From: Alphaproteobacteria bacterium
GTDB lineage: Bacteria > Pseudomonadota > Alphaproteobacteria > Caulobacterales > Maricaulaceae
NCBI GenBank assembly: GCA_024742735.1
Contig: JANSXV010000001.1
Span: forward strand, 930,001 to 994,000
Direction: 5' to 3'
Length of the DNA: 64,000 bases
The notes beneath the pieces are model-generated. The model was given only the letters and a program-made list of their open reading frames with translations, made no database searches and was not told the DNA's origin. Positions within the stretch are counted from its first letter, which is position 1. Each line of letters opens with the position of its first letter. The translations under genes and the position numbers were made by a program. Shown here piece after piece: positions 38,580-55,186 of this stretch.

Positions 38580-41500
38580 TCAGCCGTGCATCACGGGATC
38601 GAGTGGCGCGATCGCTTCAGCGCCGGCGCCGTACCCCGCCCCGATCTGCGCGACGCGCATCCACGCCCCCGTCAGGCCGCCAGGCAACCAGTTGGCGAGC
38701 TCGGTCGCCGGGATGGTCCAGCCTGGGATCTGAACCTCGCGCTCAACAACGAGGCTGTCGGCGGCGTCATAAAGCCGGACGCGGTATCGCTCCGCCTCTT
38801 CGCCCAAGGGTATTTCGCCGGCCGTCCAGGCGTCCGCGTCGATCCGGCTCCGCCGGATCCAGCTCAGCGCGAGGTCATCGCCGGTCCAGCGGCTGCGCAA
38901 ATGGACCGGGCGCAGCGGCGCGAGATCGGCGCCGGCATAAACCGCCTCCACCTGACGCGCCGACGCGTCGGTCAGCGTCCTTGCAGGCGGAACGGCGATC
39001 ACAGTGATCGGCGCCTCGCGCTCAGCCGCCGTCACAGGCAGGACCACCCCGGCGCCGTCGAGCACGACGACATTCGCGCCCGGCTCCGCGCCAGCGGACG
39101 GCGAGCCGCCCAGGCCGCGCAAGAGCCCGGTCAGGCGCCAGGTGTCCGGACCGGTCAGTACAGCGGTCTCAAAGGCCAGGACCTCCCAGCCCAGATCCGT
39201 CTCCACCGCGAGCCGGTTGGCCCCTCCCAGCACGGCGGCCAGGTTCGAGGCGGAGAGCGCGCCGTCATGCAGGCGCAGCTCCACGGCGCCGGCGCGGTCC
39301 CAGCGCCCTTCAGCGCCTGGCGCCAGGGCGGCGGTGAGTTCGCCGCACCAGGCCGGCTCCGTGATCCGTGCGCGTTCGTCGGCGACCTCAGCGCTCGCAC
39401 CGGCGAACAGCACCAGCGCGCCGGGCCAGGGATCCGCCCAGCCAACCGCCCAGAGGCCGCCGCGCGCGGCGCCCTCGCCGGGCGCCGGCGGCAGATCCAG
39501 AAGGCGCAGGAGCGGGCGTCCAGGCAGCTTCGGCCCGGACGCCGCACCGGGCTCCGGACCGGCGATCAAGGCTGGCCCAGCGGGAGCGCCCGTCAGTTCA
39601 GCAGGACGCGCGTTCAATCCATCCAGCGCCGCCAGACGCCAGGCGCGCCCGGACGGACCCACGTCCAGCTGCACCGTATCGCCGGCCTCCAGAGCGCACA
39701 GCGAGGGCGGCAAGGTCATAAGCGCGGTCTCGCCCTCGGCTCGCGCGCGAGCCAGCAGACCCCCCGCCCATTCCCTCGCCAAACTGCGATCGGCCAGCGC
39801 GGGCAGACGCACCTCAACCGCGCCCTCCTGAACATGATCGAGGCCCCGCGCACTGACCGCGCCGGCGCGGTAATCCCCGTCATCAGCGGTGAAGATGAGG
39901 CGCGCTTCGGCGATCTGTTCTTCGGGTGCGGCGCGGGTGAAGGCCAGCCGATCGGCGGGATCGGCAGGCTCGACCAGCCGGTCGCGCTCGATCAGGACAG
40001 GGGTGTTCAACCCGTTGACCGGGATCGCCGCGGGCCCGTCAGCCCTGTCAGCAAGGGTGAACCCGAACGCCGCGCCAAGGCGCTCCAGCACAGCGCGGGC
40101 AGAGCTCGGCGCATCGATCCTGAAGCCCGCCAACACCCCGCGCAGCGAAGAGGTATCAAGATTGTCCAACCCGGCCCTTGAGGCGATATCGGCGGCGATA
40201 TCGGCCAGCGGCGACTGCCCGACCCGTCCGGTCAGCCAGTGGCCGCGCCGCCAGTTTTCCCCGTCCGCCCAGACTTCAGTGCGCGCAGGAAACTCCGGGA
40301 AGGGCCGCGCATCCCAGGTCCACACGTGGCAGTGGGGCAGATCCAGCATGGGCTGGCCATAGAGGCTTGAAACCGGGTTGCGGCCGGGCTCGGACCAGTA
40401 GCCGATCAGCGCCTCGATAGAGCGGCGCTGGATCAGATCATCGCGCGCGCCGCTGGAATAGTAAGGCGCGAAACTCTCCGAGCTCTTGGGGTCGATGAAG
40501 ACATTCGGCTGGTTCGCGCCCTTGTCGACGGCGGGACAGCCCAGCTCCACCAGACGGATCGGCTTGCTTTCCGGGATCCACGCCGTGGGCGAGGCCGCGC
40601 GCACGCCGCCCGGACGGTCGTGGTGGGGATTCGCCCACCAGGTCTTCAGATCCTTGTAACGCCAGACCCAGGGCTCGCCGTAAGCGCCGTCGGTGATGGG
40701 CGTGCGCACCTGCGCATCACGGTCGCCGGAGCTGGCGTAGAACCAGTCATACCCCTCTCCGCCCTCGACGTTGGCGCTGAGATAGGCCGGGTCATGGATG
40801 GACTGAGCGCCAGCCAGCGCATCGGCGTGAGCGGTCCCGTCCCGCCAGTCCGACAGCGGCGCATACCAGTCGATCCCGACAAAATCGATGTCAGCATCCG
40901 CCCAGAGCGGGTCCAGATGGAAGAAGCGGTCGCCGGACCCGTCCGAGGGCGCATGGCCGGAATACTCCGACCAGTCGGCGGCGTAGCTGACTTTCACCTG
41001 CGGCCCGAGGATCGCGCGCGCCTGCCCGGCGAGCGCCCTGAGCTTGGCCACGGCCGGATAGGTCGCGGCGCCGGAGCGGATCTGCGTCAGCCCGCGCATC
41101 TCCGAGCCGATGATGAAACTCTCCACCCCGCCCGCCGCCGCAGCCAGAGCCGCGTGGTGGAGGATGAAGCGGTTAAATCCCCAGTCCCCAGCCGGGCCGG
41201 AGTACGTCACCGCACCTGCGGAAACCTCGAAATCACCGGCCGCGACCGCCCCGAAGAACGCATCGACCTGACCTGCCGCGGCCGCGCTCCTGTCCACCGT
41301 GCCCGGCTGGCCGGCTGCGGGATGGCATGTGATCCGCCCGCGCCAGGGAAACTCCGCCTGCTCCGCCCCGCCATAAGGGTCGGGCAAGCCGTTCCCCGGC
41401 GGGACGTCCATCAGAATGAAAGGGTACAGCGTGACCGCGTAACCGCGCGCCTTCAGCGCGTTGATCGCGGCGATGATCGTTTCATCGCTCGGCGCGCCGC

Positions 41501-42440
41501 CATAGACCGGACCGCCTTCGCCCTGGCTGATCAGATGGGCCGTCGCCCGGGTCTGCCCTGCAGCGCTCCAGATAAGGGGGCGGGTGGTCTTGTCCCGTGT
41601 CTCAACGCCGGGCTTCAGCGTGCAGTCTCCGGCGCGCAGATCATCGCCGAACCAGGATGTGACCAGCGCCACGGAGCGGCAGTTCGGCAGCCGGGCCTCC
41701 AGATCGTCCAGCGCCGCATCAAAGTCGGTCGGCGCACGGTCCGTATGAACATTCTCGGCGCGTTCGTAGCCCTCGATGATCTCGCGCAGGACCGGCTGGG
41801 TCGCGTAGGCGAACTCACCGGAGGCCGGGATCAGGCAAACCCCTTCGATCAATGTCTCCAGGGATCCGGACGCCGCTTCAGCACGCGTCGGTGCGAACAC
41901 CTCGAAGTTCAGGTTGGGTATGCGCGCGCCGAACTCATCGAGCGGCAGGTCCTCAAAGACGACATAGGCCAGCCCCCGATAGGCCGGAGCCTGGCCGGCG
42001 CCTTCTATGGCCTCGATCAGCGGGTCCGGCGTCTGGTCCTCGGCTCCGGTGTAGACCCGCATCACCAGTCCGGCCCGCTCGATCGGCTGGCCGTCGGCCC
42101 AGATCTGGCCGATCCCGCCGATGGGCCCTTCAGCGACCGCCACGGCGAAGCTGAGCGTGTAACTGTACTCGGTGACCTTCGGACCGCCCTTGCCGCCCCC
42201 GGCGCTGCGCGTCTGGGAGGTCTCGACCGGATAGGCCGCCCAGATCACCTGACCCGCTGTGCGCATGCGGCCATAGACGATGGGCACTGTCGCGCCCTCG
42301 CTGGAGGTCTGCAGGGAGAACTCGTCCACGCGTGGGCCCTGGACCGGCTCTGCGAACAGGCCGGAGATCGCGCGCGAGACCATCGAAGCGACATAGGCGC
42401 GCGCCACATTGGCGGCGGTGGTGAGAGCGAACTGGGCCAT
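38580..42440 (-). CDS. GTA host-specificity / TIM-barrel-like tail protein (RcGTA g15 homologue)
   Basis: About 1,286 aa; MAQFALTTAANVARAYVASMVSRAISGLFAEPVQGPRVDEFSLQTSSEGATVPIVYGRMRTAGQVIWA; glycoside-hydrolase-like TIM-barrel region; last gene of the GTA cluster. Confidence 0.92.
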   Translation of the reverse strand: MAQFALTTAANVARAYVASMVSRAISGLFAEPVQGPRVDEFSLQTSSEGATVPIVYGRMRTAGQVIWAAYPVETSQTRSAGGGKGGPKVTEYSYTLSFAVAVAEGPIGGIGQIWADGQPIERAGLVMRVYTGAEDQTPDPLIEAIEGAGQAPAYRGLAYVVFEDLPLDEFGARIPNLNFEVFAPTRAEAASGSLETLIEGVCLIPASGEFAYATQPVLREIIEGYERAENVHTDRAPTDFDAALDDLEARLPNCRSVALVTSWFGDDLRAGDCTLKPGVETRDKTTRPLIWSAAGQTRATAHLISQGEGGPVYGGAPSDETIIAAINALKARGYAVTLYPFILMDVPPGNGLPDPYGGAEQAEFPWRGRITCHPAAGQPGTVDRSAAAAGQVDAFFGAVAAGDFEVSAGAVTYSGPAGDWGFNRFILHHAALAAAAGGVESFIIGSEMRGLTQIRSGAATYPAVAKLRALAGQARAILGPQVKVSYAADWSEYSGHAPSDGSGDRFFHLDPLWADADIDFVGIDWYAPLSDWRDGTAHADALAGAQSIHDPAYLSANVEGGEGYDWFYASSGDRDAQVRTPITDGAYGEPWVWRYKDLKTWWANPHHDRPGGVRAASPTAWIPESKPIRLVELGCPAVDKGANQPNVFIDPKSSESFAPYYSSGARDDLIQRRSIEALIGYWSEPGRNPVSSLYGQPMLDLPHCHVWTWDARPFPEFPARTEVWADGENWRRGHWLTGRVGQSPLADIAADIASRAGLDNLDTSSLRGVLAGFRIDAPSSARAVLERLGAAFGFTLADRADGPAAIPVNGLNTPVLIERDRLVEPADPADRLAFTRAAPEEQIAEARLIFTADDGDYRAGAVSARGLDHVQEGAVEVRLPALADRSLAREWAGGLLARARAEGETALMTLPPSLCALEAGDTVQLDVGPSGRAWRLAALDGLNARPAELTGAPAGPALIAGPEPGAASGPKLPGRPLLRLLDLPPAPGEGAARGGLWAVGWADPWPGALVLFAGASAEVADERARITEPAWCGELTAALAPGAEGRWDRAGAVELRLHDGALSASNLAAVLGGANRLAVETDLGWEVLAFETAVLTGPDTWRLTGLLRGLGGSPSAGAEPGANVVVLDGAGVVLPVTAAEREAPITVIAVPPARTLTDASARQVEAVYAGADLAPLRPVHLRSRWTGDDLALSWIRRSRIDADAWTAGEIPLGEEAERYRVRLYDAADSLVVEREVQIPGWTIPATELANWLPGGLTGAWMRVAQIGAGYGAGAEAIAPLDPVMHG

Positions 42441-54804: not shown

Positions 54805-55186
54805 CGTGAGCGTTCGCCTCCGGCGCAGGTTCAGCCGGCTTCGCGGCGGTGTCGTTGTCCATGATCCACTCCTCCACCGCAGCGGCGGCGCGTAGTATCG
54901 CTTGCAGCGCTTTGGCCCGCCGCTCGGCCTCGACCGCTTCGCCGCGTTCCAGCGAAACAAGGGCCTCGTCGAGGCGGCGGGCCAGAGCCGCCTTGAAACG
55001 AACCGGCGCGAACGGCGGAAAGTGCGCGTCGATCCAGGCGCAGCGATCCGCAATGGTGCGCCGGTTCACGCCGTACTGATCGGCGATCCAGGCTGCGTCG
55101 TGACCCTGGGTCCACAGATCGTGAGCGGCCATCCAGTCCACCATGCGGCGACCGGCCTTGGTGTTCTCGCTGTCTTTTTCGACCAT
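54641..55186 (-). CDS. GTA small terminase-like protein (RcGTA g1 position)
   Basis: HTH-like AAHDLWTQGHDAAWIADQYGVNRRTIADRCAWIDAHFP; first gene of the cluster; overlaps the large terminase start. Confidence 0.78.
   Translation of the reverse strand: MVEKDSENTKAGRRMVDWMAAHDLWTQGHDAAWIADQYGVNRRTIADRCAWIDAHFPPFAPVRFKAALARRLDEALVSLERGEAVEAERRAKALQAILRAAAAVEEWIMDNDTAAKPAEPAPEANAHDDPRAELERRLGNLLDHELKRRAARGGAADARSDAGSADGRSGGEDAAGEPLDQ

What the first reader, a model, noticed from the sequence alone, without database searches (positions are those of the whole stretch)
38580..55186. GTA structural cluster loaded with moron-like cargo genes
Seen directly: homologues of RcGTA g1 to g15 lie on one strand in the canonical order. 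Several structural-gene junctions hold non-structural inserts: terL/portal (DUF559), g5/g6 (plus-strand membrane protein), g8/g9 (micropeptide and DUF4760-like protein), g9/g10 (plus-strand lipoprotein), g12/g13 (SRPBCC). In known GTAs this block is compact and usually co-transcribed. Independent cargo with its own hairpins at gene junctions resembles phage morons. Inference: a domesticated GTA is acquiring cargo, possibly defence, envelope or lysis accessory functions, or is decaying.
Basis: partly seen in the sequence, partly recalled or inferred. Interest (0 to 1): 0.85.

Follow-up and report, generated by a model that had tools for sequence, protein, structure and literature searches.

The report
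Gene transfer agent carrying moron-like cargo
A bacterium's domesticated virus (a gene transfer agent, which moves random host DNA between cells) is intact, but unrelated passenger genes have been slotted between its particle-building genes, including a tiny repeat peptide plus a membrane protein that in every genome where the peptide was found sit at that one position.

Summary
An RcGTA-type cluster (g1-g6, g8-g15; g7 is absent) lies on the minus strand of an Oceanicaulis-like genome. It is intact and under purifying selection in congeners, with gafYZ present elsewhere in the genome. Five junctions carry non-structural genes. Comparison of 109 distinct GTA loci (73 with a full gene set) shows inserts are common in Caulobacterales (56 of 73) but differ between lineages. 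They concentrate at g2/g3, g11/g12, g4/g5, g8/g9, g12/g13 and g5/g6, and almost spare g6-g7-g8, g10/g10.1 and g13/g14. The DUF4760 and SRPBCC inserts end in strong terminators absent from insert-free sisters, so the operon probably needs anti-termination; GafZ does this in Caulobacter crescentus. Two inserts run antisense. DUF4760 is also carried by Acinetobacter prophages at a typical moron position. 'Moron-like' is supported for these two slots; own promoters are unproven; decay is rejected here. Newest part: a repeat micropeptide (EGTSR copies) + terminator + DUF4760 + terminator cassette at the same GTA junction in four Maricaulaceae genera. A two-copy pattern for the peptide hit 3 of 398 Caulobacterales genomes, all at this position. 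Its function is not shown.

The parts
54641..55186 (-). g1, small-terminase-like first gene
   Evidence: syntenic homologues in congeners, 30-46% identity
53449..54804 (-). g2, large terminase (TerL); start uncertain, overlaps g1
   Evidence: PF03237/PF17289
52893..53240 (-). insert at g2/g3: DUF559 nuclease-like protein
   Evidence: PF04480 1.7e-34; at this junction only in the window among the 40 GTA loci first compared
52760..53440 (.). palindromic REP-like repeats bracketing DUF559 (46-nt inverted arms 52835-52880 / 53295-53340)
51583..52722 (-). g3, portal
   Evidence: PF04860 2e-87
51314..51586 (-). g3.5
   Evidence: conserved, 39-65% identity, in nearly all clusters
50700..51245 (-). 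g4, prohead protease S78
49440..50663 (-). g5, HK97 major capsid protein
48882..49427 (+). insert at g5/g6: antisense orphan membrane protein, converging on g5, start codon 3 nt from the g6 start
48282..48878 (-). g6, head-tail connector
   Evidence: PF05135
47875..48285 (-). g8, tail completion/terminator; overlaps g6 by 4 nt, no g7
   Evidence: PF11367
47602..47664 (-). insert at g8/g9: micropeptide MTIEGTSRSGFATSIEGTSR
   Evidence: homologous repeat peptides in L016, L181, L061 at the same GTA junction
47564..47577 (-). intrinsic terminator between micropeptide and DUF4760
   Evidence: z -5.2
46949..47536 (-). insert at g8/g9: DUF4760 protein
   Evidence: PF15956 8e-25
46898..46919 (-). terminator between DUF4760 and g9
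46446..46865 (-). g9, tail tube
   Evidence: PF06199
46276..46449 (+). insert at g9/g10: antisense small lipoprotein, overlaps the g9 stop by 4 nt
   Evidence: LPAM_1 above cut-off; homologues in six congeneric clusters and in L061
45909..46196 (-). g10
   Evidence: PF11836 GTA-gp10
45706..45912 (-). g10.1, tail assembly chaperone
   Evidence: PF09550
45177..45719 (-). g11, short tape measure
   Evidence: PF09718
44560..45180 (-). g12 (DUF2460)
43844..44497 (-). insert at g12/g13: SRPBCC (AHSA1-like) protein
   Evidence: PF08327; homologues at the same junction in congeners
43793..43820 (-). terminator between SRPBCC and g13
   Evidence: z -5.4
42889..43773 (-). g13, baseplate hub
42446..42892 (-). 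g14, NlpC/P60
38580..42440 (-). g15, megatron
   Evidence: NF048004 1598 bits

Best explanation
This is a vertically inherited, apparently functional RcGTA-type gene transfer agent whose single long operon has been colonised by moron-like genes at junctions that tolerate extra DNA. SHOWN: the inserts differ between sister species, occupy preferred slots, and at g8/g9 and g12/g13 end in intrinsic terminators just before the next GTA gene; two inserts are antisense to the operon. INFERRED: cargo is expressed independently of the GTA and shielded by its terminators in the GTA-off state, while in GTA-on cells GafYZ-modified RNA polymerase reads through the terminators and antisense genes, as GafZ does at terGTA in C. 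crescentus; the operon therefore accepts such inserts at little cost. INFERRED: GTA transcription would lay antisense RNA over the lipoprotein and membrane genes. The g8/g9 slot holds a defined cassette (repeat micropeptide, terminator, DUF4760, terminator) that most likely serves the host, for example as a membrane-associated exclusion or abortive function. That last step is a guess from its moron position in Acinetobacter prophages.
For: Intact ORFs and canonical order. Same chromosomal site (dnaJ-like and response-regulator flank) across the order. dN/dS 0.04-0.46 for most structural genes, 0.10-0.14 for SRPBCC, 0.03-0.07 for the HTH insert, 0.21-0.25 for the lipoprotein in congeners. gafY and gafZ adjacent elsewhere in the genome. 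Inserts lineage-variable and slot-specific. Terminator in 9 of 14 g8/g9 junctions with insert against 1 of 88 without (5 of 11 against 2 of 78 at g12/g13), the same stem sequence under two unrelated cargoes (DUF4760; DUF4258+HTH). One sister (L009) lacks SRPBCC but keeps the terminator, read as a scar. DUF4760 lies between lysozyme and integrase in Acinetobacter prophages. GafZ bypasses terminators in the C. crescentus cluster (PMC11150451). SRPBCC is found outside the GTA in three relatives.
Against: No promoter above chance at the inserts. Anti-termination and particle production were not tested here; g7 (head-tail stopper) is missing, so function is assumed. Junction counts are phylogenetically correlated; Fisher p-values overstate. 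dN/dS is from congeners; the window's own pair has dS near 1. DUF559 and lipoprotein have host-like GC. The g5/g6 ORF has no relatives and may not be a gene.
Confidence: 0.68

Rival explanations
1. Some inserts are GTA accessory functions (particle, release or self-immunity genes) expressed with the operon, not host-serving morons. The micropeptide-DUF4760 cassette would be dedicated to GTA producers or recipients.
For: Brevundimonas clusters carry the RcGTA-type spike base protein (NF048002) with GDSL and acyltransferase genes at g2/g3, so a slot can hold a GTA part. The repeat micropeptide was found only at GTA g8/g9 (3 of 398 Caulobacterales genomes by pattern, plus the Marinicauda locus).
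Against: DUF4760, SRPBCC and the lipoprotein are absent from many intact clusters. SRPBCC and DUF4760 also occur outside GTAs. Terminators in front of g9 and g13 would cut GTA expression without anti-termination.
Confidence: 0.22
2. The inserts are mostly neutral or selfish DNA: a palindrome-bracketed DUF559 unit at g2/g3, an orphan ORF at g5/g6, others in transit.
For: DUF559 genes across the order are bracketed by palindromes; the g5/g6 ORF is an orphan with weak coding signal; high turnover of inserts.
Against: Purifying selection on SRPBCC, HTH and lipoprotein homologues; peptide-level conservation of the micropeptide; slot-specific terminators.
Confidence: 0.15
3. The GTA is decaying and the inserts mark degeneration.
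For: Five related genomes keep only pieces of the cluster (G002, G003, G026, G028, G036), G022 a rearranged one, and G012 shows no trace at the site; g7 is missing; the g5/g6 and g9/g10 inserts oppose the operon.
Against: All other core ORFs are full length and under constraint; g7 is missing in every congener with an otherwise complete cluster; gafYZ intact.
Confidence: 0.05

Closest known systems
RcGTA and C. crescentus GTA (alphaproteobacterial type I GTAs)
   Same: Gene set and order, short tape measure, megatron, unlinked gafYZ-type activator; extra genes (gtaQS) and a terminator lie between terminase and portal in C. crescentus (PMC11150451)
   Different: Five inserted junctions, two of them antisense; terminators at the g8/g9 and g12/g13 inserts; g7 absent
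Phage morons of lambdoid and other temperate phages
   Same: Non-essential-looking genes between structural genes, absent from close relatives, with own terminators; DUF4760 is found in prophages at a moron position
   Different: Host element is a GTA that cannot package itself as a unit; promoters not shown; some inserts have host-like GC
Noncontiguous operons (from own knowledge: operon genes split by an opposing gene)
   Same: Antisense lipoprotein and membrane ORF inside a same-strand operon
   Different: No transcript data here
REPIN/RAYT systems
   Same: A DUF559 gene bracketed by palindromes, as RAYT genes are by REPs
   Different: DUF559 is an endonuclease-like fold, not a tyrosine HUH transposase; mobility not shown

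Membership tests
RcGTA-type gene transfer agent | Homologues of g2-g6, g8-g15 in canonical order on one strand | tested here: met
RcGTA-type gene transfer agent | g7 head-tail stopper present | tested here: not met
   g6 and g8 overlap by 4 nt; none in congeners; also missing from other families of the order. Not sought elsewhere in the genome. Not a constant member of such clusters, so not taken as disqualifying
RcGTA-type gene transfer agent | Stable chromosomal site shared with relatives; no integrase or replication genes in the cluster | tested here: met
RcGTA-type gene transfer agent | GafA/GafYZ activator encoded in the genome | tested here: met
   DUF6456 protein with adjacent DnaA-domain-IV-like ORF at G000:C30 ~64 kb; DnaA-likeness of GafY read by eye
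RcGTA-type gene transfer agent | Particles with random host DNA | not testable with these tools
   needs cultures
Moron | Insert present at a junction that is uninterrupted in close relatives | tested here: met
Moron | Own terminator | tested here: met
   DUF4760 and SRPBCC; not for lipoprotein, DUF559 or membrane ORF
Moron | Own promoter | tested here: inconclusive
   no sigma-70 site above chance
Moron | Base composition unlike the neighbours | tested here: inconclusive
   DUF4760 60.4% and membrane ORF 60.6% GC against 66-73% for core genes; SRPBCC 65.4%, DUF559 68.7%, lipoprotein 67.8%
Moron | Expressed independently of the phage operon | not testable with these tools
   needs RNA-seq
Type II toxin-antitoxin (g8/g9 insert of four sister clusters, not the window) | DUF4258 protein next to MqsA-like HTH protein | tested here: inconclusive
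   PF14076 and PF01381 met; TIGR03830 54.4 bits, below cut-off 61.8

The most novel reading that the evidence does not exclude
The g8/g9 cassette is a GTA-dedicated regulatory or immunity module: a multi-copy hexapeptide ([I]EGT[S/N]R) micropeptide family, apparently undescribed, that controls or partners a membrane-associated DUF4760 effector, perhaps by attenuation at the terminator 24 nt after its stop codon, and protects GTA producers or their kin. It is kept at one junction of a domesticated virus in at least four genera.
Probability: 0.3. Interest if true: 0.8.

Novelty: new variant of a known kind. Interest (0 to 1): 0.6.

Why it matters
GTAs are usually described as compact, domesticated structural operons. 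A clade whose clusters accept and swap self-terminated cargo links GTAs to phage moron biology, predicts that processive anti-termination (GafZ) is what makes the cluster tolerant, and offers ready tests. It also warns that prophage/GTA classifiers based on compactness may misjudge Caulobacterales. The repeat micropeptide-DUF4760 cassette is a concrete, small, testable unknown.

Tried and rejected
DUF4760 phylogeny: saturated and partly fragmentary, uninformative. SRPBCC phylogeny: Oceanicaulis copies unresolved; the GTA-resident copy of G017 lies on a very long branch and could be a separate insertion. DUF4760 structure: pLDDT 71.5, no significant PDB fold, best BFVD hit E 0.0085 without a name. 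PADLOC: no defence family beyond weak domain hits. Rfam: only sub-threshold chance matches, mostly on the GC-rich palindromes. Viral contigs: no DUF4760 relative of this type and no micropeptide. Translational coupling as the rule for protected junctions was considered: overlapping junctions carry fewer inserts (40/613 against 108/759), but g11/g12 breaks the rule, so it is at best partial. Literature: no report found in the held library of moron-like cargo in GTA clusters or of DUF559 with REP-like repeats, and nothing on DUF4760 in GTAs; subscription journals are not covered.
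Full report
WHAT IS THERE. The window is from an Oceanicaulis-like genome (order Caulobacterales; named relatives are Oceanicaulis, Hyphobacterium, Marinicauda, Woodsholea, Maricaulis). ORFs, Pfam and NCBIfam confirm a complete RcGTA-type structural cluster on the minus strand from 55186 to 38580, except that g7 is missing: g6 and g8 overlap by 4 nt, here and in all congeners with both genes. Flanking genes (dnaJ-like, response regulator) mark the same chromosomal site across the order.

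STATE OF THE GTA. Structural genes are open and full length. In three congeneric groups dN/dS is 0.04-0.46 for most core genes (g10.1 up to 0.58). A DUF6456 protein (GafZ-type) with an adjacent 120-aa DnaA-domain-IV-like ORF (GafY-type) lies elsewhere on the same contig. The cluster is therefore most likely functional here. Loss is real elsewhere: G002, G003, G026, G028 and G036 keep only pieces, G022 a rearranged and partly deleted cluster, and G012 no trace at the site.

THE INSERTS. g2/g3: DUF559 inside palindromic repeats. g5/g6: an antisense membrane ORF with no relative among 5.8 billion proteins (a word-based search), lower GC (60.6%) and weak coding signal. g8/g9: micropeptide, terminator, DUF4760, terminator. 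g9/g10: antisense 57-aa lipoprotein. g12/g13: SRPBCC protein and terminator.

COMPARISON. 121 GTA loci including the window were placed (109 distinct by capsid, 73 with a full set). 56 of 73 have at least one junction of 400 bp or more; the window has four such, which only six clusters, itself included, reach or exceed. Frequencies of gaps of 400 bp or more: g2/g3 40/84, g11/g12 30/88, g4/g5 26/106, g8/g9 14/102, g12/g13 10/89, g5/g6 10/104; but g10/g10.1 0/94, g6/g7 0/54, g7/g8 1/53, g13/g14 2/88. Gaps are from gene models, so thresholds are approximate, and related genomes are not independent. About 20 non-homologous insert families were called at g2/g3 and 12 each at g4/g5 and g5/g6; a few may be spurious ORFs.

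TERMINATORS. At g8/g9, insert-bearing clusters end in a near-identical AGCCGCCC..GGGCGGCTTTTTT hairpin 30-45 nt before g9, whether the cargo is DUF4760 (window, L011, L061, L062) or DUF4258+HTH (L003, L006-L008); L016 has a variant. Insert-free sisters have gaps of -4 to 41 nt and no hairpin. At g12/g13 the same holds for SRPBCC in five clusters (not in L005 or L008), and L009 keeps the hairpin without the gene. A hairpin after the capsid gene is native to 16 of 84 insert-free g5/g6 junctions. In C. crescentus a terminator lies between the terminase and portal genes and GafZ lets polymerase pass it (PMC11150451). My reading, an inference, is that GafYZ anti-termination makes the operon tolerant of self-terminated cargo and of opposing genes.

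THE g8/g9 CASSETTE. The micropeptide MTIEGTSRSGFATSIEGTSR (47602-47664) has counterparts directly upstream of a terminator and DUF4760 at GTA g8/g9 in Woodsholea (L016: MDMKALNYTHGAIEGTSRIEGTSRCEGTSRIEGISR), genus g9 (L181: MKFCQTNIEGTSRIEGTSR) and Marinicauda (L061, two EGTNR copies). Over ten motif copies, codon positions 1 and 2 of E-G-T-S/N-R are nearly fixed while third positions vary: it is most likely translated and selected as peptide. A two-copy pattern hits 3 of 398 Caulobacterales genomes, all at this GTA junction, and only the window itself in a sample of 395 Alphaproteobacteria; the pattern is strict and misses diverged copies such as L061. DUF4760 genes outside GTAs in relatives lack it, and so do the GTA-resident copies of L011 and L062. 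In Acinetobacter prophages a DUF4760 gene lies between lysozyme and integrase, opposite to the late genes, a usual moron place. No fold match was found.

OTHER CARGO. SRPBCC homologues lie outside the GTA in G022, G023 and G028, so this is a host gene family that probably entered the cluster. In Brevundimonas the g2/g3 cassette contains the spike base protein family of RcGTA with GDSL and acyltransferase genes, so one slot can hold genuine GTA parts; 'moron' is therefore not a blanket label.

VERDICT. Own promoters, independent expression and any defence role remain unproven.

Noticed in passing
window 52760-53440; L143; L147-L175: DUF559 genes across Caulobacterales are bracketed by REP-like palindromes: 9-bp hairpins 2.4/kb within 550 bp against 0.5/kb beyond; left and right flanks tend to be inverted copies (median local score about 18 against 10 in the far control). 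Resembles REPIN/RAYT layout with DUF559 in place of the transposase.
   Followed up: partly
L047 (G002) about 2823-5514; L050 (G028) about 12697-15376: Two genera share a GTA remnant with the same breakpoint: terL up to about codon 174 joined to g15 from about codon 517. The intact window genes have a near-identical 10-nt word (TGGGCnGATG) at both places, so parallel deletion or transfer of the deletion allele are both possible.
   Followed up: partly
L003, L006, L007, L008, g8/g9 junction: Sister clusters carry a DUF4258 protein plus MqsA-like HTH protein (toxin-antitoxin-like) in the slot that holds DUF4760 in the window, with the same terminator.
   Followed up: yes
Brevundimonas loci such as L072, L085, g2/g3 junction: GTA spike base protein (RCAP_Rcc01079 family), GDSL hydrolase and acyltransferase 3 genes form a conserved cassette between terminase and portal.
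   Followed up: partly
L004, L016, L056, L061, L067, L069, L181 and window, g5/g6 junction: Antisense ORFs, several of them membrane proteins and mostly not homologous, recur between capsid and g6; 10 of 12 insert families there are antisense.
   Followed up: partly
G000:C21:6450-7613: A second, 42% identical HK97 capsid gene elsewhere in the genome, probably a prophage.
   Followed up: no
L052 (G022), about 2979-9060: A decayed GTA with an inversion (g3.5 and g15 each split at the inversion ends) and loss of g4 to g12.
   Followed up: no
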